A DNA stretch of 64,000 bases, from NCBI GenBank assembly GCA_037178675.1, contig JAYMGJ010000207.1, positions 43,517 to 107,516 on the forward strand, written 5' to 3'. The notes below the pieces were generated by a model that worked only from the letters and a program-made list of their open reading frames with translations, was not told where the DNA came from and did no database searches. Each line of letters opens with the position of its first letter. The stretch's first letter is position 1. The stretch comes from Scleroderma bovista (lineage: Eukaryota > Basidiomycota > Agaricomycetes > Boletales > Sclerodermataceae). The translations under genes and the position numbers were made by a program. This document shows, one piece after another, positions 8,601-33,836 of the stretch.

Positions 8601-8657
8601 ATTACAAATCACAGCGCGTGTGCATCCAGCCCCTCGAGCCTTTTCAATACGAGCACC

Positions 8658-10441
8658 ATGGGAATTGATGGATTATGGATGGTAAGTCAGCCATGCTGAC
8701 TTGTGTTGAGAGCCAACTAATGCTTCCAGGTTGTTGCACCTGCTGCGAGTCGACGCGCACTGGACGAGTTTGTCGTTAGTGAGGGCTTTCGCCCACTCAA
8801 TACAGGGGATGCCCCACAGCTCATGCGTGTTGGATTTAATGCAAGGTAAGGCGCATGCCGAATTGCATCCAGGACATAAAACTGACTTACAATGGTCTAC
8901 ATAGCCTCTGGATGCATGCCGCTTGTGACGTTAACAACGCGAGCGCCGGTGAATCCCCTGAGATCCAAACCATATTTTATCACCTTGTCACCATCTCACA
9001 GATGTTACTCCACGCTCACTTTGTCTTCGACGGACCACAAATGCCAAGATGGGCGTGTGGAAAGCACAAGAGTGCACCCCATTTCCTTACACAATGCTTT
9101 CAAGAACTACTTTCCGCCTTCGGATTTACCTGGCATGAGGTACATTCATTGCTGCAACAGCCGCTGCAAGTGCTGACATCCTCCCGAGGCCCCTGGTGAA
9201 GCTGAAGCTGAACTTGCCAAGCTCAATGCCCTCGGCACCATTGATGCCATTGTGTCAGATGACAGTGATGTGCTCGTGTTCGGTGCGTCATGTGTTATTC
9301 GGAGGTAAGTCAGTTTCCTGGTTTTCAATGTTAGCAAAGCTGATGGACAATAGCTCCCTGCGACATGAACGTTACGAAGTGGTCGATGTTTTCACTGAAG
9401 ATGCATTGAAGTATGGCGCCCACCTCAGCCGAGGTGGGTTACTGCTTATTGCGCTTATGAGCCGTGGTGACCGCAGTGTACGTCGTCGGTGTCCTGATCA
9501 TTATTCACTGACACAGCTTTGACAGGATGGCATTCAAGGATGTGGTATTGGTATCGCGCACAGGCTTGCCCAGTATGGGCTAGGTGACACGCTCTTGCAT
9601 GCCGCAAACACACTCCCCTTACTCGAATTCGTCTCAACATTCCTTGTTGATTGGCGGAAGGAGTTGTGTAGGGTTCTTACGTTGGATCCCCTTGGAATCC
9701 TGCAGCGCAAATATTGTGATCTTGCTCATGTCATTCAGGGCATGACTGACTTCCCTGATCCTGTTATCATTGCAAACTATTTGTCCCCTTTGACCTCGTG
9801 GTCGAAGGATGAGCCTGACCTTTCTGACTTGGCGACATGTCGTCAGCCTGACCTGACGGCTATCAGCCGATTCTGTGTACAGCGTTTCTCTTGGTCCACA
9901 GAAGCGGTCCTCAAAAATTTGAGTGGCGTTTGGACTGCTGTGGTCGTTCGAGCGCTCTGTCAGGTAAGCTACCAATGTCGTTACAAGAAAGGCAGCTGAT
10001 GTTTCCATCAAGCTCCCTCAACCACGCAACATGGCCTTTATGTTTTCACCTGCTGATCTTCACATTGTAACCTCACATCAGAAGTCGACACCCGCTCAGC
10101 CACTTACTGTATACAATGTGTCTGTTCGGAATGTATCGCTTCATGCAGCGACCATGTTTGGCATTTCAGGACATGTTGGCACAGCTCAAAAACCTCTAAT
10201 CGCAGCCCGGCGTGTTCACGCTATGGAAATACCAGCCTGTGTGGTTGACTATGGCGCACCCCATCTATCACAGGGCTCTCGAGTCACTGGTCATAAGATG
10301 GTGTTGGTACGTGGCCTCGATATCGTGGAGGTGGAAACTTGTTAATCCCACCTGCAGACACCAATGCCTCTCGAGAAAGAAAATGAAGTTGGAATTATAT
10401 ATGAGAAAAATAGTGTTATGGATCTCACAGTTTCGGATTGA
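8658..10441 (+). CDS. XPG/GEN1-like (PIN-domain) structure-specific nuclease, 476 aa
   Basis: Eight exons splice to an open frame: 8658-8681, 8730-8845, 8905-9139, 9189-9304, 9354-9477, 9526-9963, 10013-10306, 10358-10441 (1431 nt). The protein starts MGIDGLW, as Rad2/XPG/GEN1 nucleases do. Family metal-binding motifs are visible: VFDGP (D89), APGEAEAE (E129/E131), SDDSD (D149/D150/D152) and RGDRSDG (D203), followed by a helix-hairpin-like GIQGCGIGIAHRLA. Two positions differ from active enzymes: the N-terminal Asp in the VDAS-type motif is Asn (GFNAS, N45), and SGGDY is SRGDR. Family members cut flaps or Holliday junctions. Here it probably works with the YR gene that follows, for example in resolving transposition intermediates, but that is inference. 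Confidence 0.82.
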
Positions 10442-10645
10442 AAAGTTGTCGGGAGGGTCTTAAATATTGTCGTAGCAACAGTAGACTTGACGAAGATCTG
10501 TATCTCATTAGATTTTTCTTGACCTTGTTGAATGTCAGACTTTGTGTCGTACTCGCATTTCAAATGTTGTGAACCATCTCTTGACTACTCCCAGTACTGT
10601 AAACCCCCTGGCTACCTCAACACTCAAACTACATGCAACGGACAT

Positions 10646-13275
10646 ATGGCGAGGCAAAAGGCATCTGTCAAGAAACAACCTGTGGTTCCCGAGTCTCCAA
10701 CAAAGTCCAAGAAGAAGACACAAGGACCGGAGAGCTCGACATTAGAACAGGTTAAGCAGATCTCACAGGAGGGTAAAGACACGCACCTACAGTCCGACCA
10801 GACCAAGAAGGCCTATGCTGGACATGTCCGTCGAGGGCGCGAGTGGCTGCAGAGTGTCGTTAGTGGTGGAAATGATACTTCTGGCAGCAGTCTCGAAGAC
10901 TTCAAGGACCCAGAATTCAAACATGCATTTGAAGACATACCAAATAGGTTCTCTGCCAAGGCACTCTCCTTGTACCTGTCATTGAAAGGGTTCGGCCAAG
11001 AGCGGGGTCAGAGCACAGTTGAAGGTGTGCATGCAGCCTACAAAAAGCTGTGGGACAACGCGTGAGTTTCAATTGCCTTATGCTTCAATGAATTAATGTG
11101 GCCATGTCATTAGTGATGGTGACACCTACCGTAATAAATGGCATCATAATGATGCACGACAGCGATGGGAAGGGAACCCTGCAAACTCAGCAGACGTTGC
11201 AGATATCATGACAGCAGTCAAACACAAAATAGGCGCCGAAGGAGCTGACCGTGTGCATTCATCTGCGATGAAGAGAGAGCATATGGATAAGATTCTTGTG
11301 TGGACGAAATCAACTTGTCCAGAAATTGGAAGCGCATTGAATTTCCTCAGCATCGTGCTAACTAAGGGAAGGCTTTTACCCAGCGCATGTGGCATCAGCG
11401 ACAGCGCAAAGAGGCAGATCACGAAATACCTTCAATTCCTTGCCTTTACTTCCACAGCTTGGACGATCTGGAGCAGGTACGACATTAATTCAGATGACTC
11501 TATTGATCTGTCTTGGCTTACCAAATAATTTTGGCAGGTGCTTCGAGCTTGTGAAGCTCAAACGCGAAGATATTCGAATGGATATCTCACAGGCGGACTT
11601 CGTCCTTCTCAAATATCTACAGGGAGCGGATGATACCTTAACTGATAGTGATCATGAAGTTTATTACGAGATCCATCTAAAGAATAGGAAGGGATGGCAA
11701 AAAAAGACTGACAAGGGTAACCGAGAAATAGACCTACGAAGTAAGTTGCTTGAGATCTGATGCAGCTACTGTCCTAATGCTGCTGCTGTAGGTAATCGTT
11801 ACAAGATATACCCACGACCCGACTTGATGGCCTGCGACTCGTTCTTCTGGCTGCTCGTTTGGATGAGGTGGCTAGAGTATGCACATCTTGGCTGTCCGAT
11901 GGCAGATGGAGACTTTATCTTCCCTGCAATTGGTGCAAATGGAGCTGTGTACCCTGGTGAACCAATATCGCATGATAAGATCCAGAAATACATCAATGAA
12001 GCGATGACAGGCAGTGGTATTGAAGGCAATTTCTCGACGCATTGTTTCCGACGGGGGGGGGGCGCAATATCGGTTCATCCAGGCACGTGGAGAAGAAAAA
12101 TGGGACTTGGATGTGGTTCGATGGTGGGGCGGATGGGCAGAGGGGGAGCACGTTGAGTGTCGAGTTTCCTTTCTTGTCTTTTTTTCTTTTGACATCGTTA
12201 CCGTTGCACTTGCAGAACTACACCCTGATCCGTTACCTTTTGGACGAACTACATTATTACCAGCACGATTATAGTGACGCATTGCGGCGTCCCCGTCGAA
12301 GTGACGCCGATATGTCACTCATTGCTGACCGCGCTCTTCTAGCACCGGCCTCAAGAGAGGAACTTTGTTCCTTCCATTCATCGGTAACTGCAGATTTGAG
12401 GGAGATCCGCAACGCAGTCGCAACCTTGGACAACTCTATGTCCACTGTGTGTACCAAGGTTGGGCACATCGAAGACATGCTGGGCAATGTCACAAATTCT
12501 CTCCGCGGTCTCACTGAAGCCATCATTACGCGCTCAGGCCCCCTACCTAGTACAACGAGTATTGGCAATTATTCCCCGGCTTTTGGTACTAGAGGTACGC
12601 CGTTTGAATTTGCCTCTCTTCATCGTTGATTTCTTACTTTGAGTGGACTGTGCATGTGTGACAGAGCGCGGTGCCCTCCCGATGAGCCTAGCACCCGCTC
12701 CGAGTCCACCGGTTGTCCCAGTGCCTGAGAGAAACTTCGTTGGCCCACGACACTTTTCATTCACTTGCACATCTGTGCAACTACCGGTCACCCAGCCACC
12801 GCCAGTCGCTTCCGAAAGTAGCTACTCTGAATGCCCAAGTCTCATCGTCATTCCCGATGTGCCTGGTCGTAGGACAAGAACCCCGGCAAGGGAAGGGTGG
12901 AGGATCGTTGTCCGACACTGGCTGGAAGGTGACCCACAACTAAAGTTGTACGTTCCCCTCAAAGATTGGCCGTACGAGTATACGCACAGATCCAACCGCA
13001 AGTGGCAATCAAAGTACAACCAGCGGCGCACAATTGCAACCGAATTCCTTGAGCGGTGAGTGCCTACTCCCTCGATTTTCTTAATATCATGTCAATGCTC
13101 ACTGACATGTTCACTCAGGTACAATAGCAACGAGGAGGAATTTATTCAGGCGTATGGGGATGCCATCGAGAAGGGCATTGCAGCGCTCTTCAGAGCCATC
13201 ACCCACGCTCGCCAGGTTCGAGGAGATGCGGAGGTTCGAGGCCGTCGTCAGGCTTCCCACGCTGCCCAGCAGTGA
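10646..13275 (+). pseudogene. Tyrosine recombinase of Crypton-like type, one-base frameshift in catalytic motif
   Basis: Seven exons: 10646-11061, 11114-11476, 11538-11740, 11792-12151, 12216-12594, 12665-13055, 13119-13275. They give a 755-aa frame if one G is ignored in the run of ten Gs at 12053-12062. Start ATG 10646 (MARQKA) matches the start of copy 2. YR catalytic features: Arg-I motif RCFEL (R260), HCFRR (HxxR, at the frameshift), RWWGGWAEGEH, and the nucleophile Tyr in LIRYLLDE (Y454). The C-terminal part (PLKDWPYEY ... KYNQRRTIATEFLE) resembles a GCR1_C-like DNA-binding domain. The extra G may be a true mutation or a homopolymer sequencing error. Spliced intron phases match copy 2 at all six introns. 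Confidence 0.75.
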
Positions 13276-14910
13276 CGACGACAGTGACCAGCAATCATTT
13301 TCATTTTTCATTTTGGTTTTTCAACTAGACATTTCCTTCCTGTACCCTAGAGTCACTACAATGCTGCATTGCTTTTTCTGTCCCTCTGATGAGTCTGGTG
13401 ATCCCACAGCGAGCCGCCGAATTGAGTTTTTTCGTCCCTCGGCCTTCGGACAGTCTCACTCGGCCTGAGCCCAGCACCCGTTCCGTTCCGTCGAGCACTC
13501 CGTCGATCACGCCTGTCACGGCTCACGCTCACTGACGCTCGCGGACTTACGGCAACGATGCCGTCCCAGCGAGGCACCCCCATGCCGACATGGGCTCCCG
13601 ACTGTCGGGGTCCCGCCCCCTCTTTCCTGGAAAGGCAAGGCACGTGCCCCCGCTCCCGATCTGGCCTTGCAGCGACCGTAAATTTCTCGAGATAAGTAAA
13701 CATTCCAACTCAGTGGACATAAATCCGTACTGTGCGGGCAGACTCCAGCTGGGTGCACCTGTTCCACCGGGGTAAGCTTGAACGACTCGGTTTGAATTCT
13801 ACAACCGAGAGTTGCGACGCGACCGCGTTGGAGTGAAAACGTGAATTGAGTCGTTGACATCACCGTGACATCAATAAGGTCCCAATGATCCATCACCTAC
13901 GTTGATCGAAGGAACTGGGCCATCAAGGGGGTCGCTTAACTACACGGGGAAAGATGTGCGCAATTAAATATACGTTGATATCAGTGCACTCACGGGCATA
14001 GAATCCAATGCACTACCAGGCTGGCCTAGAAACTCTGTCAAAGTAACGGAAAGAACAAGAGGCAGAATAGGTGCAGGTGCAGGTGGGACCGCAGAAACGA
14101 GAGATACAGACTCAAAGATAATACCGATGAGTGTGATCGACGTCCGTTACACATCAGAGGACAAAGTGTGCATCTGACACTTGCGTAGGACGGCTTTTGC
14201 TAAAGCTGGCTTGTCGTGAATAGACACGAGATCATTGGTTCATTACTCGTCCCCAAACGGTGATACATGACGTGTTTGTGCAGGGCTCCTGGAAATATGA
14301 AAAGGATGAAAGATTAGACACGAGTGGTACGGTAGCATCTTCCTTGAAACTGTCAACGCCACCTTCACGTATCTATGAGTGACGTTGGCGTGGACAATCC
14401 TTTATCCCTGCCAGACCGCGATTTGTCGGTGTCCGAGGCGCTTCCGTAGTTGGCTTTGCAAATAGTAGAATTGCCTTTGCATGGAAAATGAGAGCGAAGC
14501 GACGGTCAACCTGATCAAATTATTCTTGATGGACTGTGCAATGAGACAGTCGTTCTGGGATCACAGGATGATGTGGATCAACGCACCGTGTGGTCACCCA
14601 TTCAACTGGACCCTTGGATTCGAGTCCATCACCCTCTATAGGAAGAGCTACAAGCTTCTCAGAGCAGAGCCATGGAAGATGCACAGGTCTGCGCTGGCGA
14701 GGTACGTGTGGAATTGATGCCACTTGACCAAAGACAGCATCGAGCAGCAAAGACCACGCGGCTCAGTGTTTTGGCGGTGCGATTCACAGTGCCACGACAA
14801 TATTCGATGACCCGGAGTCAATATGTTGCCAGTTGGTTCCAGGTCAAGACGGTGCGCTTCCTTCGGGTCGTCCACACCCACATTTTATTCCGTTTCCTCC
14901 ACAACCCCCG
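13276..14910. other. No gene recognised
   Basis: GC-rich to 13700 (much CG-rich sequence with short ORFs on both strands), then mixed sequence. Overlapping short ORFs at 14481-14881 on both strands have no recognised motif and look spurious. Confidence 0.5.
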
Positions 14911-16576
14911 ATGCAACTGTGAGCTAGAATTTGTACCCCCGTACTTCTATTATCATTGCTGACACTTTGCTCAAACAGGGAGCTAACCAGCACTCTTACC
15001 GATGTCATAGCAAACGGTAAATTGTGGTTTTACCACCATGGATAGGATCACCCCGGGTTGACACCAAGCGTCCTAGTGATACTCTACTATGACTACGTCC
15101 TGACACTTCAAAGAGAGGTAGAACTTTTCTGGCTGAAACCGCGCAGGTCTTGGGCTTTCGCACTTTTCATCGCCAATCGCTATGTTCCGATCATCGCTCG
15201 CATACCTACTCTAATTGAAATATTCTGGCCACCCGATATGGGAGAGGATGGAACCGTACGTGCCCTATTGCATTGAATATAACGTGTGCGCTCAGTCGCT
15301 GATTTCCTCCTCGCGCGTGTGTATGTAGTTGTCAGTTACTAGTGTATCATTGACTTTGCCAACAAGGTGTTGACATTTTTATAGCTGCAGAGCTGCTACT
15401 CTCTACGAGCGATTTGAAATAATCGTAGTACAGATTATAGGTGGAGGTAAGTGTTGGCTTTTATCTTCTCGTCCATTGTCTGACTTGGAAGGCAGCCATT
15501 ATGATGATGCGCATGTATGCTTTGTACGAGAAAAGCAGGCGAGTCCTATCATTCTTGGTTGCATATGCCACCATCTGCATTGCTGTGGGCTGCGTAAGTA
15601 GCTGCTTTTTCATGGTTGTCATCTTGTCACAGCCATTTGCGATCTGTCATCCAGTGGGCTATACTCACCCGGGAATCCGTGAGATCACCACTCGTGCCAA
15701 CGCCTCCACTGCAATACGGATGTAACCCTGCTCTAACTGTTGAAGGGTGCGGCATATCTGTTTTCCTGATTTCTCTTGTGATTAACACTTGTGGCACTCT
15801 TAGGGCTCAGCGTACGTAGTTGGATGGCGATACTCGACAGGTCGGCGATCTAATGCAATTCGCAGGCTTAGCTCTTGCATGGAGTGGCCAATTGGCCTTT
15901 GATGCGATAGTCTTGGCTATGACATTATGGAGAAGCCTGCGTATTAGAAAACTAGGCCACCATGCCTTGCTGGATGTCTTAATACGTGACGGTCAGTCCG
16001 ACCGATATCCTGACCTGTTTTCTTATTTGATTGTGACTGAAATGCACGCTTGTACAGGTTTCTTGTATTTCAGGTCAGTCTGTCGCCATATGTTGGTAAT
16101 CAGAGCCTTACACCCAGCAGTGTAATGTGTATCGCAAATGTTGGTAATATCACTGCATTTTTGGTAAGGCTTCGAACTACTTGCCGATGTCCAGCATGTC
16201 TCATGATCTGATAACGTTCAGGTGTGCGACACGGTAAATACACCAGTACTGCCTTGGTCAAAACTATCTTTTACTATTTACCTTACTAGTCAGCGTCGAA
16301 AGTAGCCTTGGCTGGCTTCACAAATTCGTAAGGACCGACAAAACTGTTCCACATTCTCTCTGATTTGTCTCCAGAATATCTGTCACAATGATTTCGCGGC
16401 TCATGCTCAACCTCCGCAGCCCAAAAATAACTGCATCGCCCCACCTATGCACACCTACCTACCTAAGGGATGGCACGTTGCTCGTAACGACGGTAGTTTC
16501 GCCGGATTTCACGTGCCCATCGAGATACGTTGACGAACCAGCTCTGGAACTGCAACAAATCAGTATACGATCATGA
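14911..16576 (+). pseudogene. DUF6533-type multi-pass membrane protein, locus 1 (probably decayed)
   Basis: Exon pieces read MQLELTSTLTDVIAN, then ILYYDYVLTLQREVELFWLK (15080-15140), the hallmark segment of the DUF6533 family of Agaricomycete membrane proteins. Later exons hold IIVVQIIGG, MMMRMYALYEKSRR (about 15498), ALAWSGQLAFDAIV (about 15870) and a C-terminal MISRLMLNLRSPK (16388 onward), ending at 16576. Several hydrophobic stretches are consistent with about seven membrane helices. The exon joining the sequence before 15255 to the IIVVQIIGG exon does not keep frame with the visible splice sites, so one base has probably been lost or gained. Function of the family is unknown. Confidence 0.6.
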
Positions 16577-18288
16577 CAGAAATTGGCACAGGGTTGCGAT
16601 GTGACTGTGAGTGAAGGAAGCACCTCAGTTAATCGTCTGTACATCGAGTTGCGTTTGGAGGAACCTGAACAAGGGTCATAGTGGGTTTCAGATAATTTTT
16701 ATGCTCTATCTTACAATACTAGAATACATACTAGTCCATCATGTATTGTTAGCACTTCCTCATTTACACCTTATACTGCATCAGCGCTGGTTTCGGGCAG
16801 CACGTTGTTGGCCTGGTTCAGACTGAACATTGAACATGGACCAAGCCAATACACAGCCTTACAGTAGGTCTTTTTTTTTTGGACAAGTGATAATATTGTG
16901 TAGCAACCGACTAGTCTAGCTCTAGTACATAAACACAACGCCTTTGTGGGGCGGCCGGTCCGAGGAAAAATGTTCTTACGCACTATCCGTCTTGCGACGG
17001 GGTGTGTGGGACTCCATAGGCTCACTGGTGAACCCGTTTCAGGTAGGGGACCTGGTGAGCGTGATAATACCCACTAAAACGTATGATGGTATTACTACAT
17101 AAGTCATACCAAACCGTCATAGTGTCTTTTCAATGCCGGCTTAAGTGCTTCTTCCAACAATTTCTAATGATCTAACTTACATACCATAGAGGCAATGATG
17201 ATCCGGGCATGGCCCGTTGGCATCCCCTACCTTGGGTATCAGGTGGAAAGCGTGTACACCCTACCTACTAATCGCCACTCCGAACGTTGAACGCCTTTGA
17301 CAGACATACAATAAGGGAGCTTGTCTTACCAAGTGTGAGTAGTATAGACGTCGATGCCAATCGGGACACTCCTGCATTGCCACCAAGCGCTGACTCCAGG
17401 GTTTTCTCCCATTTATTTACAGTATGAAAGGGTTTCGACGATCACGGTGATACGCCTCATGCTAAACCTTCGGGAAATTTAAAAAAATCCTTTTGAGGAT
17501 ACTCGGTGACCGAATATTTGATGCTTTGATGTGATCAACATCTGTCGAGGAAAGGGTTACATTTGTTAAGATATCGTGCGGCGATTGCCGGCGCGGTGTT
17601 ACAGTCAAGGATTATATCACACAAATGATCTAGCTTCCCTATGTCCGAGTAGTCCGGGACTACTCGGACATAGGGAAGCTAGATGGTGGGCGTCGAGGAC
17701 CAAGATGTTATTCCGTTGTGTATGTAAGCCACTACGGTACCATGTGTATTATATAAGTGGCAAGCTCTCAACTTGCACAGAAGGCACTTTTGGAACTTCT
17801 CGCCATCTGATCCCACTGGGCCTGGTCTTGATTTGTCGCCTGCAAGTGTGTTGGTATAGTTAGCACATATTTCTTCCGCTTTATAATGGTAGAAATGATG
17901 GGATCATTTGTGATATTGGCTGTGACCCAGATCAGTTATCTGGGCTGTGGCTACATAGTAACGCAGTCACCGGCAGAGTTCAGCGCTGCAGCGGCCGATC
18001 ATGTAAACCTCGACCGAAACTGAAAGGCGAGCCAATAAATCAACCAACAGAGTAAGTTACTTGCCGTCAGTTCATAAGACACCACGTTCTAGTCGGCTTG
18101 AACTGCAGCGGTGTTCGCTTCACTAGCTTTATGTAACTAAATGATAGTGAGATGCGGCTATGCAGCCTGTGCCAGTGGCTGTCACTTGACCCGCCAGACG
18201 AACTGGAAAGCTAACTTTTAGCACCCACGAATTCGTCCAAACCCTCTCCATTCCAAACCTTTTGGGATCACCTATTGCTTTTTCTTTA
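16577..18288. other. Intergenic part of duplication unit 1; no gene seen
   Basis: Most of this stretch has a shorter counterpart at 20520-21278. The segment 17253-17930 has no counterpart in unit 2 and contains the 57-bp palindrome. No credible coding sequence. Confidence 0.5.
17628..17684. repeat. Perfect 57-bp palindrome (28-bp arms, 1-nt centre)
   Basis: Positions 17628-17655 are the exact reverse complement of 17657-17684, with a single G at 17656 between them. The arms start ATCTAGCTTCC and end GAAGCTAGAT. Such a long perfect hairpin is expected to be unstable, so it is either recent, maintained, or an assembly artefact. Confidence 0.95.
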
Positions 18289-19965
18289 ATGGAATCTCAG
18301 CCAGTGTGAGTAGTATTCCGACATATCTTGCAAACCACTGCTAACTGTTGAACGGCGGCTGACAGTGATGTGAGCGTATCTTTCGCCGTTGTGACTTGCG
18401 GTAAGGCACCTTACATCCCACTACCATTCTTCTCCCGTCATGTGCTTTGAAGGAACGACTATCTTCCTTCAAATCTTGAGGTTTGCCTACGGGAGACTAG
18501 TCATGGCAGGTGCTGACACTCATCTACAGTACTCATGCTGTATGATTACGGACTAACATTCGCAAGGGAGATCGAGCTATTCTGGCAAAGACCCCGGAGA
18601 TCATGGCCTTTTGTCCTCTTCGTTGCAAACAGATATATCACCATCCTGGGCCACATACCGCCATCTATTTCCACTCTCTGGTCTTCAAGATACTTAGACT
18701 ATAGCGTATGTTGTGCCTATTACATTGATCGGCAGTTAATGGCTCACCTGACACTCGACTACAGTGGTGGGCCGATCCCACGACGTATTCCGCCGTTAAC
18801 TTATGCAGTTCGTGATCAGGTGCAGTTCTATGCGCCTCACTGACCAGCTTGTAATCGTGGTGGTCCAAATTATCGGAGGAGGTGCGTTGTTGATCATCTC
18901 CCCACGTGTTCACCGCAATAATGAACCAAAGTTATCATGGGCATGCGTATCTACGGTCTTTATCAAAAGAACCGGTCGGTTTTTATCTTTCTTCTGGCAA
19001 TTGGGCTTTGTGCGATCACCGCGGGCTGTGTGGGTGTCATCTCTCATCACATCACCACTTTTGAAGCTGACAAAGTAACAAGTGGGCAATCATTTCCTCG
19101 TCCGCCGATTCGACGACTTTGTCTCTATCTCAATGGGAGTTGATGAGTACTATGGACTGTTCATATTATTCTTCTCATTCGTGAGACTTCCGGTTCAGTA
19201 AAGCGTAGTCTGGTGCTCATTAACACTCTCAGGAGCCTATGTATGGCCACTCCATCTAAGAAAGTGAATGGTGTTTATGACGTAATTATATGCAGATCTA
19301 GCAGTAGCATGGAGTGGGCAGCTCATGTTCGACTTTGCTGTGTTCCTTCTTACGCTCTGGTCATCGCTCTGTGTCCGGATGGTGGGGAGCCGGAATGTGA
19401 CGGACATTTTGCTGCGGGATGGTGTGTTCAATCATTTCCATTACTTCTATTTACTTATAGGTTGACTAGGTACTCTATATTTCGCGTGCGTTGGTGTTCA
19501 CAAGACGTGCCAACGATTGCTGATGAAATTCCTAACTTCGCAGAGTAATGTGTGGAGCTAACATCGCAAATATTGCTATGTTGTTGGTGAGCTTTCTGCG
19601 CCACACTCCTGATTTCACAAGCTAACCTAATCTAGGTGGCAATGGTCAGCTATAATATCCCGCATGAATACGGTGTATTGACGTCATTCTCTCATCTATT
19701 AACAGAACCCCTTGCAAAGTCTCCTTGGCCCTTTCACGAACATGTAAGTTCCATCCATGGCGTTTGAAGTTTGAAGTGATTGATATTCTACACCAGAATT
19801 TCTTCTCTCATGATTTCAAGACTCATGCTGAACCTTCGTGATCCGAGTATAACGGTTACAACAACAACTTCTTTCCCTCCATTATCTCATGCAAGCATGT
19901 TTACAACACCCGCTCGTGATACAGGTGGTGTTAGTACTGGCCAAGCATCGATGTCGATGGCATAG
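18289..19965 (+). CDS. DUF6533-type multi-pass membrane protein, locus 2
   Basis: Start MESQPV at 18289, then spliced exons reading DVSVSFAVVTC, VLMLYDYGLTFAREIELFW (18530-18590), FVLFVANRYITILGHIP, and after an intron ending TTATGCAG (18803-18810) the segment IRCSSMRLTDQLVIVVVQII, then MGMRIYGLYQKNRSVFIFLL (about 18937). These junctions keep frame. The middle exons after 19030 are less clear. The 3' exons include an AWSGQLMFDFAVFLL-like segment (about 19310) and MISRLMLNLRDPS (about 19810), ending at 19965. Hydrophobic segments suggest an integral membrane protein. It is the best preserved of the three loci. The cellular role of this family is not known. Confidence 0.6.
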
Positions 19966-20329
19966 CCATGAAGCTACACAGTTTGCTCTTGATCATTGGT
20001 GCGTGCAATTACAGTTGCTGGTCGCATGGTCCTTAGTCTGGTGTTGGGTGGATTAGGTGAATTAGCTCAAGCTTTGATGAGGTCATTCGTTCATGTGACA
20101 CTCTTGCTATTTTCTTGCATAATTTATTTTGCACACAACCTCATGATCTGATAACGTTACAGTAGGTGTGCGACACGGTAAATACACCAGTACTACCTTG
20201 GCTAAACTATTCTTGACCATCTACCTTACCAGTCAGCGACGAAAGTAGCCTTGGCGGGCTTCACAAATTCGTAAGGACAGGCAAAACTGTTCTACATTCT
20301 CTCTGATTTGTCTCCAGAGTATCTGTTAC

Positions 20330-20519
20330 AATGATCTCGCGGCTCATGCCCAACCTCCGCAGCCCAAAATAACTGCATCGCCCCACCCATGCACACCTAC
20401 CTACCTAAGGGATGGCACGTTGCTCGTAACGACGGTAGTTTCACCAGATTTTACATATCCATCGAGATACGTTGATGAACCAGCTCTGGAACTGCAACAA
20501 GTCAGTATACGATCATGAC
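20330..20519 (+). pseudogene. Duplicated 3' exon of DUF6533 locus 1
   Basis: Matches 16388-16576 closely (MISRLMPNLRSPK...). A run of five As in the parent is four here, which shifts the frame immediately to a stop. It is an orphan exon left by the segmental duplication. Confidence 0.7.
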
Positions 20520-21278
20520 AGAGATTGGCTCAGGGTTGCGATGTGACTGAGTGAAGGAAGCACCTCGGCTCAGAATCATCTGTACGTCGAGTTGCGTTCG
20601 GAAGAACCTGAACAGGGGGATGACACAGTGGGTGCTCATTGACACTAGTTTCGGGCAATATGTTGTTGACTGAAGGAAAGTTCATGGACCAAGCCACCTT
20701 AGTACTACTTATTACTACACAAGCAATACCAAATTGTCCTAAATTGACACGGTGTCTTTTCAAATCCCAGCTTTCGTCTTCTAACAATTCCTGATGATCT
20801 AACCTACCATAGAGACGATGATGGTAGGCCTAGCATGGGGTAGTCCCTGAGATGGCCATAAAGTCGATGAAAAAAAAATGATGATGGCACGGCCCTCGTT
20901 GGCATCCCCTACCTTGGGTATCAGGTAGAAAACGTGAGCTGTTATCTGGGCTGTGGTTACATAACTCCGTGGCAGAGTTCAGCGGATGTAAACCTCGACC
21001 GAAAGGTGAGCCAATAGATCAATACCATCAGTTCATGACACACCACGTTCTTCGACATTGGACTCCAACCTCCAGCGGTGTTCGCTTCACTAATAGTTAA
21101 TGTAACTAAATGATAGTGAGATGGCTATGCAGCCTCAGGCTATGCTCAGCATCGATCAATTATGCCGGGCCCTGTCAGTGGCTGTCATGCTTGACACGCC
21201 AGACGAGCTGGAAAACTAGCTTTAGCACCCAAACCCTCTCCACTCCCAACCCTTTGGGGCCACTTATTGCTTTACTTA

Positions 21279-22920
21279 ATGGAATCTCAGCTGTGAGTAT
21301 TCCTCACAAGGACATATCTTGCAAACATTCGCACCACTACTAACTGTTGAGCGGCGGCTGACAGCGATGCGAACGTATTTTTCAACTCTGTGGATTGCGG
21401 TAAGGCATCTTACACCCTGTTACCATTCTTCTCCCTTTACTACTAGTGCTGACACTCACCTGCAGTACTATTGCTGTATGATTATGCGCTCACATTCGCG
21501 AGGGAAATCGAACTATTCTGGCAAAGACCCCGGCGATCATGGCCTTTTGTTCTCTTCGTTGCAAACAGATATATCACCATCCTGGGTCACATCCCGTCGT
21601 CTGTTACCTCTTTTTGGCCTTCAAAATATTTAGGCAATGGCGTATGTTGTATTTATTGCATTGGACAATAGTTAATGGCTCACTTGACCTTCGACTATAG
21701 TGGTGGGCCGGTCTCACAACATGTTCCGCCGTTAACTTATGCAACTCGTGATCAGGTGCAATTCTATGCGCCTCGCTGACCAGATTGTGATCGTGATGGT
21801 CCAAATTATCGGAGGAGGTGCGTTGTTGACCGTCTCCCCACGTGTTCATCGCAGTAATGAACCGAAGTTGTCATGACCATGCGTATCTATGGTCTTTACC
21901 AAAAGAACCGGTCGGTTTTGATCTTTCTTCTGGCAATAGGGCTTTGCGCAATCACTGTTGGCTGTGTAGGTGTCATCTCTGAACACATCACCACTTTTGG
22001 AGCTGACAAAATAACAAGTGGGCAATCTTTTCCAACCACGCCGCTTCATCAACTGATTCGATGCCGACTTTACCTCTATCTCAAGAAGAGTCGACGAATA
22101 ATTTGGGCTGTCCATATTTTTCTTCTCAGTCGTGAGACTTCCGGTTCAGTAAAACGCAGTCTGATGCTCATTAACACTCTCAGGAGCCTATGTATGTAAT
22201 GACCATTCCATCTCGAGAAAAAGGTGAATGGTATTTATGACGTGCTTATATGCAGATCTAGCAGTAGCATGGAGTGGGCAGCTCGTGTTCGACTTTGCTG
22301 TGTTCCTTCTTACGCTCTGGTCATCGCTCTGTGTCCGGATGGTGGGGAGCCGGAATGTGACGGACATTTTGCTGCGGGATGGTATGTTCAGTCATTTTGT
22401 TACTTCTATTTACTTATGGTAGACTGAATAGGTGCTCTATATTTCGCGTGCGTTGTTCACAAGACGTGCCAATGATTGCTGATGAAATTCCTAACTTCGC
22501 AGAGTAATGTGTGGAGCTAATATCGCAAATATTGCTATGTTATTGGTGAGCTTTCTTCGCCACATCCCTGATTTCACAAGTTAACCTAAGCTAGGTGGCA
22601 ACGGTCAGCTATAATATCCTACATGGATACGGTGTATTGAAGTAATTCTTTCATCTAACAGAACACCACTAAAAGTTTCCTTGGTCCTTTCACGAACATG
22701 TGAGTTCTATCATGGTGTTTGGAGTTTGATATGATTGATGTTCTATGCCAGAATTTCTTCAGTCATGATTTCAAGACTCATGCTGAACCTTCGTGATCCA
22801 AGTATAATGGTTACAACAACAACTTCTTTCCCTCCGTTATCTCATGCAAGCATGTTTACAACACCTGCTCGTGATACAGGTGATGTTAGTGCTGGCCAAA
22901 CATCGATGTCGATGGCATAG
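21279..22920 (+). pseudogene. DUF6533-type membrane protein, locus 3 (duplicate of locus 2)
   Basis: Start MESQL at 21279. Exons match locus 2: LLYDYALTFAREIELFWQR (about 21466), FVLFVANRYITILGH, MTMRIYGLYQKNRSVLIFLL (21873), DLAVAWSGQLVFDFAVFLL (about 22255), MISRLMLNLRDPS (about 22765), stop 22918-22920. The acceptor used in locus 2 (TTATGCAG) is TTATGCAA here, and the next AG gives the wrong frame, so this copy is probably inactive. Confidence 0.6.
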
Positions 22921-24107
22921 CCATGAAACTACACAGTTTGCTCTTGATCATTGGTGGGTGGATTAGGTGAATTAGCTCAAGCTTTGATGAGGTCATTCAT
23001 TCATGTGACACTCTTGCTATCTCTTGCATAAATTATTTTGCACACAACTTGTACAACTCAACCACAGTACATGCCCAATGCATTTTCCTGTCAAGTGTTG
23101 TCTGACTTCCTTGAGCCAGAAACAAGATTGTTCAAATCGGAGTGATGGGCTTGCATCGGACCAGCATCAGACAGAAAAGTTGGTACAAGAACAACCTTAC
23201 ACCATTACCTCAAAGTTTCCGCTTTGGAGAGGCAATCAATATACTGAGTATTTGGGCGGGAACATTCAGGCCGATTATCTGCATATCGGTAAAATGAGTC
23301 GGAGAGGTCAAGTTTTGCATAGGGTTGGTTGGGACAAACTCTTGGAATCAAGGGATCGACCATCGATGCCAGAACAACTATCATAACAACACTACACTGT
23401 TGTGTGGAAAGGTATTCTGATTCGGGGGGCGGCTTGCTGGCGTAAGGAAGGAAAAGGCGTTTTCGAAACATAGCGAACCAACAACACCTTGCCAAATAGG
23501 TTTCTGGAATTCACAGTGAACCGACCAAAGTCTTCCAGATCGATTTCACATGAGTCCTATGCGTATATTATCATTCGACTGCGCAAATGGTAAGGAACGT
23601 GATAGGAATCAGCGGGTGTGCGGAGTTCCCACAACACTTATGATACTCGTCCCATGGTTTGGACTATGTAGTGTCATAGGGTGTAGGCTTGCAATCCACT
23701 CCCTTTACAGACCTCTGGAAATATTCTCGTAACGAGGTCCCATTCGCAGGTGGAAAGTGGAGTGTTTGCAGTACAACAGACAGTGCACGATGCTGGAAAT
23801 AAACTCCAGTTGATCGTGACCCTGCGGATAATAATTATTCGCTTTTGAGTGAGAGCCTTGCTCCTAAGTATCCCGGGATTTTAGGCCAGAGAGCCGGTCT
23901 CACCTTACATCTAGTACCGCTGGGTCATCATGATCGGCAGACCATGATAACAGCCTATGACTTGGAATAGTCTTGAACTCCAAGTTGACTCCAACTGTGT
24001 TTATAGAGCCAAGTGTCGCGTCAACAAGTGTCAATACAACGCGCTACTCTGTTTATTATGGACTACGCGACCGCGACTACTCCTTTTTCCCCACCGCACC
24101 GCCAACA
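22921..24107. other. No gene recognised
   Basis: The first about 130 bp repeat the sequence downstream of locus 2. The rest (23050-24000) has only short ORFs without recognisable motifs; the 3' end presumably holds the promoter of the gene at 24108. Confidence 0.45.
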
Positions 24108-26720: not shown

Positions 26721-28465
26721 TATGTACGGCGCGCTGGTTAAGCCTGTGTTGTCATGTGAGCATACAAGACCCATGAGCAGAAGAAGACGGTCAGCTGTCA
26801 GGCACAGGACCGTGAAGGTCATCAGGGAAGTGGTGTGAACCTACAGTTTTCATCCCTTGATAAGAGGAAGAAGGCAGTCGAAGCACGACTGAAATGAGAT
26901 GAGATAGATTCGGTCGACTAAGTAGGTTGTAACAGAGAAGAGCAGAGAAGTCAGGCCGGCCGGAAGAGTTGTCTCGTGATCAAAGTTCTCCACCCGAAAA
27001 TTGCCCGAAAATGGAATACCTTTCCTTTTTCTCCATCTTCCTTTCTCAAATAATCTTCTTTCCTTAGCTACGATTGATAGCTGGCTCAGTGCTTCGTCGT
27101 CGTGGGAGTGGAGGGGATGGAGTAACACGACTGAGGAACGCTGAGGTGGTGAAGACGAATCGACTTGGGAGGGTATACATTCACTTCCATCACCACTGGA
27201 ATACAACTTACACTGACAGATGGATTCCGTGTACCCTGGTTTCCCTGAGCGGCAGACCTACTCTCAACATTGAACAGACGTTTACATCGCTCCCCTGTTC
27301 AAGTTGCGGTTTCAGCTCCCGAGAGCAGCCCCACTGCTTTGATTCACGCATGTTGCACGGCTCTTTCGATAGTTCACATTCTCACTTCAAACCCCGCACT
27401 CAGTCGACCACTAATTTAAGGAAACTTAGACGAGACAACTCAAGCTTCAGGTGCAGTATAATCCCTGCGGTGTGCTTCATTCCTCACGCGTGGGTGGGTA
27501 CCCACTTGTGTGGAAAGGCGTAGACTACTGTGACCGACGCAGATGCACCCTGCTCGACGGCATCGTCATCGACAACACTAGCTTCATTACTGATAGTGGA
27601 CATAACTGGTGCACAGTGAGTGCTTACACTTCTGTTCTTCTATATCCGTCATGCCCGTCCCTTCGAAGAGTGTCACCTGGTAGGCTACCTATTGTACACG
27701 ATAGCATGAAAATTCTTCCCGTACGAATCTCTGCCATTCAGCGCGTTCGAGGCGTATATGCATCAGATTTGCATCAACCTTGCAGCGTGGCATCGAGGAT
27801 CACTATTAGAAGTTAGAAGTTTTCCTCCATTAACCTTCAGCTGCGCTTTGGGCGTGTTCTCTGGACATCTGGTGAACTTCGGACGAGGACATATTCCAGA
27901 TTCCTTCTGATGACGTTGAGGTGAGCAAAGCCATGATGTTGTTTGTCGACCGCTTGGTCACATACTACTACTAGATTGGTTGATATAGGATTTGGAACCC
28001 TCCGAATTGGGGTGTCTGTTCTACTGGATAAGACTTAGTTCGAGAAATTGGCAGCGCCAGCTGCCGGATGCGGGACCGTGGGAGCGCGATCGGACGATCG
28101 GGCACCCCCACGTCGACGGGTGACGGCAACGATCGCTCTGCCGGAGGTCCGCCAGGGTTCCGCGACGGTGGGATGATGTTGATTATGTCACGGTGCCCTG
28201 TGCCCGAGAGAACCCGAAGGTCGGGGGAAACAGATGCGTTTCGTCGGTCGGGAGAGAGGACGCGAGACGCAGAGGCGCACGATGGTTAATTACATTATTA
28301 CACTACACGGACACACACCACTAGCGGTAGGAGGTGTTGTAGCGATCATTACTAGTATGGATAGTTGTTGCCCAAGCAGAGTGCGAAGCCGGACGGACAG
28401 ATAAGTTGTTGAGACAATGGCGAATGCACGAACCAAATGATATTGTAGTTCGGTATGGCAGCACA
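26721..28465. other. No gene recognised
   Basis: ORFs at 27074-27523, 27451-27816 and 28068-28289 lack recognisable domains. 28040-28280 is markedly GC-rich and shares short words with the region after copy 1 of the nuclease-YR module (13540-13590), too short to interpret. Confidence 0.4.
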
Positions 28466-31340
28466 CTATTCACTGCTCTGCCCTGCTGCCGCAGGCTGAG
28501 AACGTTTCTTCCGGCGCCTTGCCTTCGTCGACGGTGCGGCCGCGATCTGGTGCACAAGCGCGACGCGAGAGCGACGCTCTCCATTTCCGCTGTACAGTCT
28601 GCGCGCGTGCTGGATCTTGTGCAGGAGATCGGTGTGACCCCGACCGGCAGCGGGACCGTAGGCCTCCAGGAAGGCCGTCTCGTTCCTTTCGAACCTGGCA
28701 GTTTGGAAAAAGGAAAGAAAAAAAGAAAAGTTAAGGCGATGAGGCATTGTGTTCCCCCAGAGGGAGCAGAAAGCGTGACGGAAGACTTACTCGTCTAAGA
28801 ACTCCGTGGCAATCGTCCTGCGCTGCGCGAACTTCTCGTTGAAGCACCGATTCCGGCCGTTGTAGTGCTCCCGAGGCCAGTCCTTGAGCGGCGTGTGGAG
28901 GCCGAGGCGAGGCTCCCCCTCCGTCCAATGCCGCACGAGGTCCTTCCAAGACTGGGACTTGGGCGCGGGCGTCCCATCCGGGAGGTCGATGGGCAGCTTT
29001 GGGATGACCAGTCCAGGGGTCGGCCCGAGCTCAGCGGCAGACCTGCGTGCGCGCGCGTTAGACCAGGACTTGGCATGGCGCGCGACACTGCCCTGGGGAG
29101 GGACTTGAGTGGGGAGCACGGGCGCGTGAGAGCGCGAGTGCGAGTGCGAGTGAGAGCGTGGTCCCGTCTCCGACGTGCAACGCTCCGCTTGCCAGGAGAA
29201 TGTTGGGACGGACTGGGATGCTGGGGAGAATGTGGATTAGTGGGCCGTCCATCGCAAGGGTCCGAGTCAATAAAAAAAAATGAAGACATACCGCTGCCGT
29301 TGACGGTGACGATCTGACCTGATTGGATTTGGGACGGGTTCGAGAGTGAGGCGGATGTGGATGCGGACGTGGGGGTGCGGGAGTCTGGTGGTTGGAGGTG
29401 GTTACTTCCGCCGCCAAGCTGCTCGTGCAGACTCCTGATATCCTTGGCCAACGCCAGCTGGCCCTCCGTCAACGCCAGCTGGGCCGCACTGAGTTTGCTG
29501 AATGCGGCCTGGATCTCTGCTGAAAGAGAAGCCTGGACCATGTTGAGGGCCTCTGTGGTGGCCGGTCGCACTAGGGCTGCTTCTCCTGCGAGCGACTGGC
29601 CAGCTTCCCGCGAGGTCGGTGCGAGCGCGTCGCTGTGGTCGTGCTCGTAATGGTAGAGTTCGTCGAGCACGTATCTCATGAGGGTGCCGTGCTGTGAGTG
29701 AGGGGGGAAAAGGTGGAAAAAAATAATAATAAAGGGGCGTCACTGTGGTGAGTACCAGCCAAGAATGGGAAAGAACAAAGCGATCAATATCTCATCGCAT
29801 CGCATCTTGCTCACCTGCTCGCCCTCAGCCCACCCACCCCACCACTGGATTACATCCAGCGACCACCGTTGCCCAGTAGGTGCATACAGAAACCGATGTT
29901 GCGCCCCTCCACGCCGGAAACAGTGGGTTGTGAAATTCTTGAAGACGCCGGCTCCTTCTGTCGCCTCGGTGATCCACTTTTGCACAGTGTCGTGCCCGAG
30001 TTGGCTACCAGGCTGCAAGACGCCATTAGCACCCACTGCAGGGAAGACATAGTCATCCTGTGCCATTGGACGACCGAGGTGAAGCACCTCGACCCATTTG
30101 ATCCAGAGGAGCAGCCACAGAAAGGCGTCGCACCCAGCGCCCTCCTTCGGTTTTGGGTAGATCTTATAGTAATTGCCTGTGGGTATCGTGCTCATCACGC
30201 TGTTTCTAATGGTGCCCGCATGGGATTGACTCACATCTCAGCAGTTCCCTCATCCCCCGATCCATTTTCGTCTGCCAGCCCTTCCGATTCCGCAGGTAAA
30301 CCTCGAAGTACGTGTGGAGCTCGCCGTATGTCAACGAACGCTCCTCTCCCTGCAGGTACTTGACAAATATGGCATCCACAGCAGAAGCGGAAGCGATTTC
30401 AATGTCTCGTCGCCGGAGTTTGGTGAGTTCGCTGTTCCTGGTAGGCAAGTGAGTCCGAGCGGCAAGGTGCTGAAAGCTGTGAAGCGTTGTGCTTACCTTG
30501 TCCAGATTGTCCATGCAGTGGAACAAAAGGCGATTTGCTCAAGATGGCGTGTGATCACCGTGCGCTCGTCCAGGTACAAGACCTTTCCAGGTGGCGGCAC
30601 TACTGAGCCAGCCACTGCCAGCCGGATGAACTGAATCGGAAGGTCAAGGTCGCAGATGGATCTCGACCAGGTATGCATCATCTCCATATACTCCTTCGAC
30701 ATGGCAGCTGAATGTGTTCTCACTGCACCCTCGGCGTTCGACTTATTCTTGATCGCCGCCATGACATCGTCAACCATCCCAGAGCGAATGGGGTTGCCTT
30801 CCCAGCGGTGCCGCACCTCACTGTAGTGCCATGGGCCACGGTACGTGTCCCCGTCACTTGCTTCCAGGTCAGTGCAACGTTCATTGAAAATGATGCAGCC
30901 GTGACTCACGCCTCGTTCCACTGCATCAACAAGGCTGCACGGACCCCCTCCGCCGTGCCTTTTTTTTTATTCCCCCGGAACACCAACCAAGACAGGTACA
31001 GTGTCGTCGCCTTGGCAGACCACTTATTTGGGGTTACTTCGAAGGCCAGCGGAAATGTCGGGTCGTTAGATATTTCCTCCGCACCTTTGTCGGCCTGAGG
31101 GAAATCATCGGGCACAGTCGTTCCAGCTTCCGTTAGCAAGTGGACCTTCACCCATTGTCGTGCCCGTTGGACGTGCCCAGCGTAAGTCTTCCTCGTCTTC
31201 AATGCTCGGAGGTGAGTCTGTGTGCCCTCCTCCTGAACTTGGAGGGCCGCTTGCAAGGTTGGTTTTTCCGTTGCATCGCGGGGTGTTTTGGTCTTCTGAT
31301 CCTGCTTGCTAGGGTTCTTAGCAGCCTTTTCCCTGGGCAT
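28466..31340 (-). CDS. Tyrosine recombinase of Crypton-like type, intact, 804 aa
   Basis: Seven exons on the minus strand: 31340-30910, 30856-30497, 30437-30235, 30176-29815, 29691-29292, 29220-28791, 28694-28466 (2415 nt, no stop). Start MPREKAA aligns with MARQKA of copy 1. Visible YR residues: Arg-I in RNSEL (R264), HCFRR (H416, R419), QWWGGW (W443/W444) and the nucleophile Tyr in LMRYVLDE (Y459). A Ser/Thr-rich linker follows. The C-terminal PLKDWPREHY ... FAQRRTIATEFL segment resembles the GCR1_C-like DNA-binding domain of Cryptons. Role: DNA strand cleavage and rejoining at element ends. The complete catalytic set suggests it could be active. Confidence 0.8.
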
Positions 31341-31564
31341 AACAGCGGTAAGGCGTGTTTTGACCAGCCGACCGTCGATTCGGAAGGACAAGATGATGTC
31401 GGGTGTTGCAAAACCACTCAATTGCAAATATTTCGAGAGTACCTTGTATCTCCCCCCATGTAACTACCGCGCAATATCAAAAAATGCAGCATTCGAGAAC
31501 GAGTCATTGCACTCAGGAAACTACCATATTACATCGAGTCTCATCATCATTTAGTTTAGAGTGT

Positions 31565-33376
31565 TTAGTCCTCCTCCATCAGCTCAATCACCTCTTCGAC
31601 GACACCACTGCGCTCATCACGAGCCGTACCAACGGTCAAATCAATCACTGGCTGGGATGCACTGCCCAGCCTACCCCCATGCTCCATATCAACGCTGGAC
31701 ATCCCGGTGGTCAGCCGTGACAGGGCTTGTCCCCGCAGTAGGTTGGGCTTCGCGTACTCGAGCACAAGTGCCGGGATTTTCACCGTGCAGGACTTCCTGC
31801 TGGCGAATCCAAACAAGGTTGAATTGCTGGCAGGTGTGGAGCCCAGAGTGGGGACGAGGAGCCGCGTTGGAACAGAAACCTTGTATGAAGCAACCGAATG
31901 AGTAGTTCGCGACGGTTCATGGAAACTAACAACCTGCATGCCGTCCAGCATGCTATTGACTTCGCCAGGAAGCTGACTCGACCCATGATTTTTGGTGAGC
32001 ACCGGAGAGAAATGATCGTGGGCATACAGCAATGCTCACCTGCAACAACGCGCGTGTGACTACCCCAGTGCAGGAATCGTTCAGCTTCTGAACGAGTCCG
32101 TCACCCGACAAACCAAAATGCTGTGAACATATAGTGGAAATGGCTGGGAGGTCTGGTTGGCGAGCCACAACGGCAATGTCCTCGTCCGAGGGAACGCGAC
32201 CATTCGACCATGATGTGAGCGGACTGGCATACAGTGCTACAGCAGGGAGGTCAGGGAATTGCAGAAGTTCCGACTGTATGACTTGGGCGAGGCCATGATG
32301 GAGCTGCTGTAGATATCCACGAGGATCGGTGGACAGTGCATCGCAAAGGTCGTGGCGCCAATTTGCTATGTACTCCATGAACTGCAGGAAAGGCAGCGTG
32401 AAGGCAGCCTGCAGGAGGCTGTCACCAAACCCGTAGCAGGCCAGTTGGCGGGCAACATCTATATCGCATCCAGGAATTCCGATCTGCATGTAAATTCATC
32501 AGTAACAGATCATTTCACCAGAATAGATACACCCACATTGTAATCACCACCGCACATCAGTGCCACGAGAACAAGTCCACCCTGTGCGAGGTGGACGCCG
32601 TGCTCGATGGCATCTGACGTATAAATCTGCATGTCTTCAAATGTACCTGCCCATGGCAGACTGGTTTTACTTGTGAAAGATCCGCAACCGTTTGAATTAC
32701 AACATCCTTACCGTTGAAGCACACTGACAGCGCCAAACAGAAGCGCATGCTCACCATCCGTGACCACAACATCAACAAGTCCTTGTAAATTCAGTTGGGC
32801 AAGCTCCGCATCTGCAGAACCTGGCGCCTGTGACACACTGTCATGAAGGGGAAGGGAAAACTATGAAGGTGTGACCTACCACATGCCAGCTGAAGCCAAA
32901 GGCGGTAAGCATATCTTGGAAGCGCTGCACCAAAAGCAGGGGGGCCGCTTTCACCTCCCGTCCTGACTTGGGCTCGGGCTGGTTGGGCCCGTCAAAAACA
33001 AAGTGAGCGCTAACGACCATCTCAGACAGTGCAATGAGGCAGGAGAAAAGCAAGCGAGCTTTGAGCAACTTTCGGGAGCCAGCGTGACGTTGGGCAAACC
33101 CACTGGACATCTCGTGAATCCATGAGCTAAGGGAGCTATGATTCACATGCACACCGCAAAAAAAAAAAACATACCTCCCATTAAAGCCTGCTATGAGAAT
33201 CCACGGGGCACCAAACTCCCGAAGAGGCCTGCGAAAACCTTCATTGATGGCGAACTCGCCGAGCATGCACGACCTTGCTGCTGGTGCGAGAACCTATCGT
33301 GTAGAGTCTTTAGCCACAGGAATCAGGGGGGAAGTGAAAAAAAAATGCGCACACTCCATAGTCCATCAATTCCCAT
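31565..33376 (-). CDS. XPG/GEN1-like protein with degenerate active site, 499 aa
   Basis: Seven exons: 33376-33353, 33293-33175, 33135-32880, 32827-32712, 32669-32537, 32483-32040, 31972-31565 (1500 nt, open throughout). Starts MGIDGLWS. The fold motifs remain (VFDGP with D96; GGDYNIGIPGC with D214), but the catalytic acidic cluster is changed: APGEAEAE is APGSADAE (E to S at 137, E to D at 139), DDSD is DGEH (157-160), and the N-terminal Asp motif is GFNGS (N46). It is therefore probably not a metal-dependent nuclease, although the frame has been kept. It may bind branched DNA without cutting. The C-terminus (VIDLTV ... VIELMEED) is acidic; the end of copy 1 also has an MDLTV segment. Confidence 0.8.
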
Positions 33377-33536
33377 TCTATAACGTATGTCACGTAGACG
33401 ATCCTACTGAGGAAAGCAGAGAGGGGGGACACAGAGTGACGCTGCTGACACAGGCGCCACTCAGCTGACAAAGATGCCCCACAGCCACATGGTATGAGCT
33501 GCATTGAATCCTCCGGTACGGATGAATCGAATGCCT

Positions 33537-33832: not shown

Positions 33833-33836
33833 CATT

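What the first reader, a model, noticed from the sequence alone, without database searches (positions are those of the whole stretch)
8658..33376. Two-gene mobile module: XPG/GEN1-like nuclease paired with a Crypton-like tyrosine recombinase
Two diverged copies (8658-13275 plus strand; 33376-28466 minus strand) have the same gene order, the same 204-224 bp spacing and the same intron phases (nuclease 0,2,0,2,0,0; YR 2,2,1,0,1,2). Seen directly: MGIDGLW start, DGP, EAEAE and DDSD motifs in the nuclease; R, HxxR, W, Y motifs and a GCR1_C-like end in the YR. Known: Cryptons are YR transposons with a GCR1_C-type domain; a partner XPG-family nuclease is not part of the described Crypton set as far as I know. 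Inference: the pair forms one element in which a structure-specific nuclease helps excision or integration, for instance by resolving branched DNA made by the YR. Conserved pairing after strong sequence divergence argues that the two genes work or move together.
Basis: partly seen in the sequence, partly recalled or inferred. Interest (0 to 1): 0.9.

Follow-up and report, generated by a model that had tools for sequence, protein, structure and literature searches.

The report
Fungal jumping gene with Holliday-junction nuclease
The window holds two diverged copies of a mobile element of mushroom-forming fungi that pairs a Cre-like DNA recombinase with a relative of the cell's own Holliday-junction-cutting enzyme GEN1 and carries pieces of host genes, a combination for which no published description was found.

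Summary
The pair is real and mobile. In the host genome 27 of 40 XPG-type nuclease loci have a tyrosine recombinase (YR) gene downstream on the same strand, always in that order. In other Agaricomycetes the two lie on one contig, side by side in one case, or are annotated as one protein. Ends are supported by several copies and by empty sites: 66 of 70 matches cross one copy's joined flanks. Left junctions read (T/A)A(A/T)GT in 12 of 12. The circular junction inferred for A is a YR-type site: two 16-bp inverted arms (14 of 16 matched) around 6 bp. A relative of the nuclease models as GEN1, a relative of the YR as Cre. Both window copies look inactive. That the nuclease resolves YR junctions is inference.

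The parts
4360..13697 (+). Element A, whole (left end CAGTTTATCTGG..., right end ...GAGATAAGT)
   Evidence: Shared ends in copies on C251, C346, C541 (both ends) and C552 (right end only seen); empty sites for the C541 copy
4358..4379 (+). Left junction of A: spacer GTCAGT (4358-4363, its GT shared with the target), left arm TTATCTGGAAAAATTT (4364-4379)
13680..13697 (+). Right junction of A: right arm AAATTTCTCGAGATAA (13680-13695) plus core GT
5246..8585 (+). Cargo of A: 3' part of a PRP8 gene with introns, decayed, interrupted at 7196-7851 by an insert similar to stretches of other loci, one of which (L028) encodes a cyclin-like piece
   Evidence: blastn to the host PRP8 gene at C239, 80-92%; phmmer to solved Prp8, E about 1e-91; similarity of the insert to L013, L014, L021, L023, L024, L028; L028 piece matches Cyclin_N at 7.5e-8, the window piece itself matched no Pfam family
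8658..10345 (+). Nuclease gene A, 7 exons, open frame, 461 aa, GEN1-like; first metal Asp is Asn
10646..13275 (+). YR gene A, 7 exons, frameshifted in a G run near 12055 (an upstream in-frame ATG lies at 10532)
28033..43482 (-). Element B, whole (right end at 28033, left end at 43482), with a foreign insertion inside
   Evidence: Shared with C109 over its length apart from the insertion; parts with C309 and C277; coordinates of its flanks
28466..31340 (-). YR gene B, 7 exons, open frame, 804 aa
31565..33376 (-). Nuclease gene B, 7 exons, open frame, 496 aa, active-site motifs decayed
33790..35790 (-). Cargo of B: CLF1/Crooked-neck gene, broken frames (about 35255-35570 was tested, the rest is read by eye from translations)
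   Evidence: (E 1.6e-41 best, 7e-38 to a Crooked neck-like protein)
36748..42918 (+). Insertion with a Plavaka-type transposase inside element B, after B integrated
   Evidence: Absent from the C109 and C277 copies; Plavaka transposase E 1.3e-70 at 40464-42284
28033..28051 (-). Right junction of B: arm CCAATTTCTCGAACTAA plus core GT
43462..43484 (-). Left junction of B: spacer GTTGCT, arm GTAACTGAGGAAATTGG
   Evidence: two copies only, both preceded by AAGT; arms 11 of 17

Best explanation
This is a DNA transposon of Agaricomycetes with a two-gene core at its right end: a GEN1-family nuclease and a Cre-fold tyrosine recombinase. Shown by sequence: shared ends, empty sites, a (T/A)A(A/T)GT target, and end sequences that in a joined circle form a YR-type site (inverted arms around 6 bp). 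Inferred: the YR excises the element as a circle and integrates it at TAWGT by strand exchange at the shared GT. Because the other four spacer bases do not match the target, a normal second strand exchange would be obstructed and a Holliday junction would persist; the element's own GEN1-like enzyme then cuts it. Between the left end and the nuclease the element carries host-gene pieces (PRP8, CLF1 and others), which move with it.
Against: No biochemistry, no circle seen. In both window copies and 12 of 120 listed relatives, the named GFNA ones all Pisolithus, the first metal-binding Asp is Asn; 66 have Asp and 42 could not be called. In this lineage the nuclease may cut poorly or only bind. 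11 of 38 YR loci have no nuclease found (the YR search scored 56 of 181 candidates, so both misses and undercounts are likely). The Mantel correlation can also arise from shared host history. A mismatch-repair bias could give the same one-sided junctions. The modelled stretch around the YR's Tyr has low confidence (residues 429-498 under pLDDT 50). Measured by target length, XPG scores nearly as high as GEN1 (0.80 against 0.82-0.85). One listed right flank (L013, GTACTTAGTT) may be a false pattern hit.
Confidence: 0.6

Rival explanations
1. A Crypton-like YR element in which the nuclease is a passenger or a helper for something else, such as repair of the donor site, copy number or defence, and plays no part in strand exchange.
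For: 11 of 38 YR loci lack a detected nuclease. The first catalytic Asp is Asn in both window copies and in Pisolithus relatives, and B's other motifs are decayed while its YR is open.
Against: Same order and orientation in 27 of 27 paired loci, and co-divergence across genera, is more than expected of changing cargo; the acidic residues are kept in 28-30 of 30 relatives, though not all of these are known to be paired.
Confidence: 0.25
2. A Helitron-like rolling-circle element that picked up both genes along with other host genes.
For: Captured host-gene pieces with introns; a hairpin close to B's right end (GGCAGC-TGGC-GCTGCC, seen by eye); gene capture is described for fungal Helitrons (PMC4289320, search listing and start of abstract only).
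Against: The ends form inverted arms, the target is (T/A)A(A/T)GT and not the A/T dinucleotide recalled for Helitrons, and a YR with conserved catalytic residues sits in the element.
Confidence: 0.05
3. A basidiomycete relative of Starships, with the YR as captain and host genes as cargo.
For: Tyrosine recombinase with cargo; weak DUF3435 matches (best E 0.021 among 7 of 35 members).
Against: For B the DUF3435 score is 14.0 against a cut-off of 25.8 bits. The YR lies at the far end and reads outward, whereas the Starship captain is recalled as the first gene reading inward; copy A is about 9.3 kb.
Confidence: 0.08

Closest known systems
Cryptons, CryptonF group (Kojima and Jurka 2011, PMC3212892; abstract, outline and passages seen)
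   Same: DNA element with a YR gene, short shared core at the ends, circular intermediate proposed; no reverse transcriptase recognised within the ends of A (the retroelement frame at 685-3984 lies outside)
   Different: Second gene for a GEN1-like nuclease; inverted terminal arms; no GCR1_C detected; host-gene cargo. The passages name a Mariner transposase and a C48 peptidase as partners, and no word beginning with 'nuclease' occurs in the paper
GEN1/YEN1 Holliday-junction resolvases
   Same: Nuclease core fold and motifs; best solved matches are the GEN1 entries 6grb-6grd, 5co8 and 5cnq
   Different: No GEN1_C domain in the window copies; the 19 rows with GEN1_C form one clade apart from the 12 paired nucleases
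Starships
   Same: YR-driven, cargo-bearing fungal elements (recalled)
   Different: Captain family, gene position and size (features recalled; for DUF3435)
Tn916/Tn1549-type elements and integrons
   Same: YR elements that join partners with mismatched spacer bases (recalled); Tn1549 and integron integrases are among the fold matches
   Different: Bacterial; no partner resolvase gene (recalled)

Membership tests
Crypton (CryptonF) | YR with catalytic R, HxxR, Y | tested here: met
   R 34/35 (1 gap), H 34/35, R 33/35, Y 35/35, also K 35/35; Cre-type fold of a relative. In copy A itself the YR is frameshifted
Crypton (CryptonF) | GCR1_C DNA-binding domain at the C terminus | tested here: not met
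   No Pfam GCR1_C hit in B at E<1, 0 of 35 relatives at E<0.1; the own-genome search gave 0, but the control genomes gave none either. A remote likeness was not tested
Crypton (CryptonF) | No terminal inverted repeats, 4- or 6-bp direct repeats at the ends | tested here: not met
   A short shared core (GT, within AWGT) is present, but inverted arms of 14/16 are also present
Crypton (CryptonF) | Circular intermediate | not testable with these tools
   Needs reads or bench work
Starship | DUF3435 captain YR | tested here: inconclusive
   Below cut-off in B; best E 0.021 in 7 of 35
Starship | Captain as first gene reading into the element (recalled) | tested here: not met
   The YR ends about 420-430 bp from the right end and reads outward in A and B
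Helitron | Rep/helicase protein | tested here: inconclusive
   None recognised by eye in translations of A; not every frame was scanned with profiles
Helitron | Insertion between A and T (recalled) | tested here: not met
   12 of 12 left junctions end in AWGT
GEN1/YEN1 resolvase | XPG_I region and GEN1 fold | tested here: met
   XPG_I 4e-17 in A and 1e-10 in B; the model of the Pleurotus relative P0023 matches GEN1 first
GEN1/YEN1 resolvase | GEN1_C domain (PF18380) | tested here: not met
   Not found in A or B; GEN1_C rows are a separate clade
GEN1/YEN1 resolvase | Full set of metal-binding acids | tested here: not met
   First Asp is Asn in A and B; B lost further motifs. Most relatives that could be called keep Asp: 66 of 78

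The most novel reading that the evidence does not exclude
A eukaryotic transposon class that splits site-specific recombination between two self-encoded enzymes: a Cre-like YR makes one strand exchange at a shared GT, and a recruited GEN1-type resolvase finishes the Holliday junction, so the element needs almost no spacer homology with its target. Its ancestor may also have carried a whole PRP8 gene, since different subfamilies retain different, collinear parts that together reach from near the start to near the end of the gene.
Probability: 0.35. Interest if true: 0.93.

Novelty: new variant of a known kind. Interest (0 to 1): 0.83.

Why it matters
YR elements are usually thought to finish recombination alone or to rely on host replication (recalled). 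An element family that appears to bring its own eukaryotic Holliday-junction resolvase makes the question of how YRs cope with mismatched targets directly testable. It may help explain why mushroom genomes hold so many proteins named only 'PIN domain-like', and it shows a route by which pieces of core spliceosomal genes are moved around a genome.

Tried and rejected
GCR1_C in the own genome gave nothing, and the controls did not ring either, so it is no evidence of absence. Helitron reading of B's right-end hairpin: dropped after the left ends, arms and targets were found. PRP8 as a fixed functional partner of the nuclease: dropped, because frames are broken, the retained part differs by subfamily and the B family has CLF1 instead. 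Single or repeated capture of PRP8 could not be settled: A and C834 share a few differences from the host copy (by eye), but there is no outgroup. Empty sites for window A, C251, C346, B and C109 were sought together with C834 in one query and not found (40 of 149 candidates were scored); window A's left flank is a repeat whose other copies stop about 12 bp short of the junction. Profile search of the YR against solved structures gave nothing at E<1. The fold list barely tests the YR's C-terminal domain. Literature: eight searches listed no paper that by title or abstract start describes an XPG/GEN1 plus YR element; only open-licence papers are held and the listed papers were mostly not opened, so this is weak evidence of novelty. 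The Prp8 mention in the Crypton paper concerns the age of domestication events and is unrelated. PMC13236599 (passages) mentions a viral A22-type Holliday-junction resolvase but not this pair; PMC10799480 (passages) did not bear on it.

One search used 11 pairs: window B, six same-contig pairs and four fused models; window A (broken YR) and the Hohenbuehelia pair (tags 21 apart) were left out. A first count of the Asp/Asn residue could include the start motif and was redone.

Full report
What was checked first. The window lies in a 51.8 Mb, 850-contig genome; the closest named relatives of both proteins are from Boletales (Scleroderma, Pisolithus, Suillus). Joining exons by hand gives a 461-residue nuclease in A and a 496-residue one in B, both with phases 0,2,0,2,0,0, and an 804-residue YR in B with phases 2,2,1,0,1,2. 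The YR of A is frameshifted in a run of G near 12055. Pfam finds XPG_I in both nucleases (4e-17 and 1e-10) and only sub-threshold Phage_integrase and DUF3435 in the YR. Both copies have Asn for the first metal-binding Asp. Among 120 listed relatives 12 show Asn there, 66 Asp, and 42 could not be called; 11 of the 12 have the motif GFNA, and those with names are Pisolithus, while Scleroderma P0003 has Asp.

The pair recurs. Searches of the own genome with XPG_I, the YR and the nuclease, grouped by place, give 40 nuclease loci and 38 YR loci. In 27 the YR lies downstream on the same strand, 685 to 4516 bp away between matched exons; none lies upstream within 12 kb. Of the 13 nuclease loci without a partner, C552 does have the YR region by blastn, several I take to be the fungus's own repair nucleases (C1 twice, C100, C119, C255, C302, C325; not individually typed), and the two on C647 look like one split copy. 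11 YR loci lack a detected nuclease; the YR search scored 56 of 181 candidates.

Other species. Among the 120 listed of 331 nuclease hits and the 120 listed of 140 YR hits, seven pairs share species and contig length: P0005/P0163, P0014/P0154, P0015/P0144, P0023/P0226, P0024/P0199, P0071/P0183 and P0104/P0213. For Pleurotus pulmonarius the locus tags are consecutive (EYR38_010709 and _010710); for Hohenbuehelia grisea they are 21 apart, so not neighbours; for the others distance is unknown. Four YR hits (P0220, P0225, P0238, P0240; Agrocybe, Mycena, Tetrapyrgos) are single annotated proteins of 1188-1245 residues that hold the nuclease followed by the YR; these may be merged gene models. Over 11 pairs the nuclease and YR distances correlate (Mantel r 0.85, 0 of 20000 permutations); shared host history may contribute. 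The DNA around these relatives could not be read here.

Ends and target. Copies of A on C251 and C346 (98-99% identical) and on C541 and C552 (about 84-94%) end together at window 13697; where the left side could be read (C251, C346, C541) they begin together at 4358-4360. B and its C109 copy share the ends 28033 and 43482; the C109 and C277 copies lack window 36748-42918, which holds a Plavaka transposase. Two further subfamilies show a left end (C517/C330) and a right end (C277/C420) of the same type. The C541 copy sits in a multicopy repeat: 66 of 70 matches to its joined flanks cross the junction without the element, at 85-100% identity; many of these are inverted pairs at one place, so independent sites are fewer. 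The C834 copy has one empty site, at 87%. Joined flanks of five other copies found none there. A scan for the right-end motif with one mismatch allowed finds 27 places against 2 for the reversed control. In 12 of 12 left junctions the host side reads TAAGT (5), TATGT (5), AATGT or AAAGT. For four of these the GT was part of the search pattern, and the two of B both have AAGT, so there the border is less sure.

Shape of the junction. Joining right end to left end of A gives AAATTTCTC(A/G)AGATAA-GTCAGT-TTATCTGGAAAAATTT: arms that match 14 of 16 in inverted order around six bases; shuffled arms do as well in 2 to 6 of 200000 trials. C834 also gives 14 of 16 (1 of 200000), B 11 of 17 (546 of 200000). 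This is the layout of a YR recombination site: the Crypton paper gives two inverted repeats of 11 to 13 bp around 6 to 8 bp (PMC3212892, passage). Four A copies in different surroundings keep CAGT after the left GT; among 25 distinct right flanks one begins with CAGT and none with B's TGCT (one of the 25, in L013, may be a false hit). I read this as exchange at the GT side only; repair bias could mimic it.

Cargo. Upstream of the nuclease, copy A holds the 3' part of PRP8 (phmmer to solved Prp8) and B a CLF1/Crooked-neck gene. The PRP8 gene taken to be the fungus's own is on C239. Compared with it by blastn, A keeps host positions 5184-8643 in pieces, L013/L014/L025 2283-3938, L019 801-2595, L021 801-3924 in pieces, L022-L024 parts of 849-1902 and about 3793-3946, C834 5297-5995 and C84 3980-4265, all in the nuclease's orientation and, in A, with introns. 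14 of the 20 loci fetched have PRP8 similarity at E<1e-8; L015-L017 and L026-L028 do not. L028 instead has a coatomer-alpha-like and a cyclin-like piece. The nuclease-side break in PRP8 differs between subfamilies and lies, by my estimate of the start codons, some 70 to 450 bp before the nuclease, L025 with a further insert excepted. One ancestral copy of the whole gene with different losses, or several captures, both remain possible. For A the pieces lie within ends shown by shared copies and empty sites, and for C517/C330 inside the shared left end, so they move with the element; for the other subfamilies this is inferred.

State of the copies. A has a broken YR. Of the other A-family copies inspected at the HxxR site, C251 and C541 stay in frame there but have Gln for Arg, and C346, C744 and C552 differ in the G run. 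B has an open YR but a nuclease without its motifs. So neither window copy is likely to be autonomous.

Verdict. The pair is a real, mobile module with defined ends, and its two proteins have paired relatives in several genera of mushrooms; the element is a YR DNA transposon, Crypton-like in its likely chemistry but outside the described Crypton set by its second gene, its inverted arms and the missing GCR1_C signal. The functional link between GEN1-like nuclease and YR is the best available reading and is untested.

Noticed in passing
window 685-3984, 47475-50612, 59149-63744: Gypsy- and copia-type retroelement open frames; 58905-59122 and 63783-64000 are identical and flank the copia frame, probably a young LTR pair cut by the window's end.
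   Followed up: no
L043 (C196:101640-103640): Two A-type right ends face outward 1.6 kb apart, a possible non-autonomous derivative with two right ends; a similar outer flank also occurs next to another right end for each (C87, C744).
   Followed up: no
right ends on C16, C87, C149, C196, C244, C327, C340, C744:17750: Right-end motifs with no YR row nearby, possibly truncated or non-autonomous copies.
   Followed up: partly
right flanks of element copies: T at the sixth base after the right core in 16 of 25 distinct flanks, hinting at a weak second half-site in the target.
   Followed up: no
window 16220-23020: Diverged direct duplications with spacings near 2.95 and 3.94 kb between the two elements.
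   Followed up: no
A-family copies and PRP8 pieces: Differences from the host PRP8 look mostly like C-to-T and G-to-A changes, suggesting methylation or RIP-like decay (by eye, not counted).
   Followed up: no
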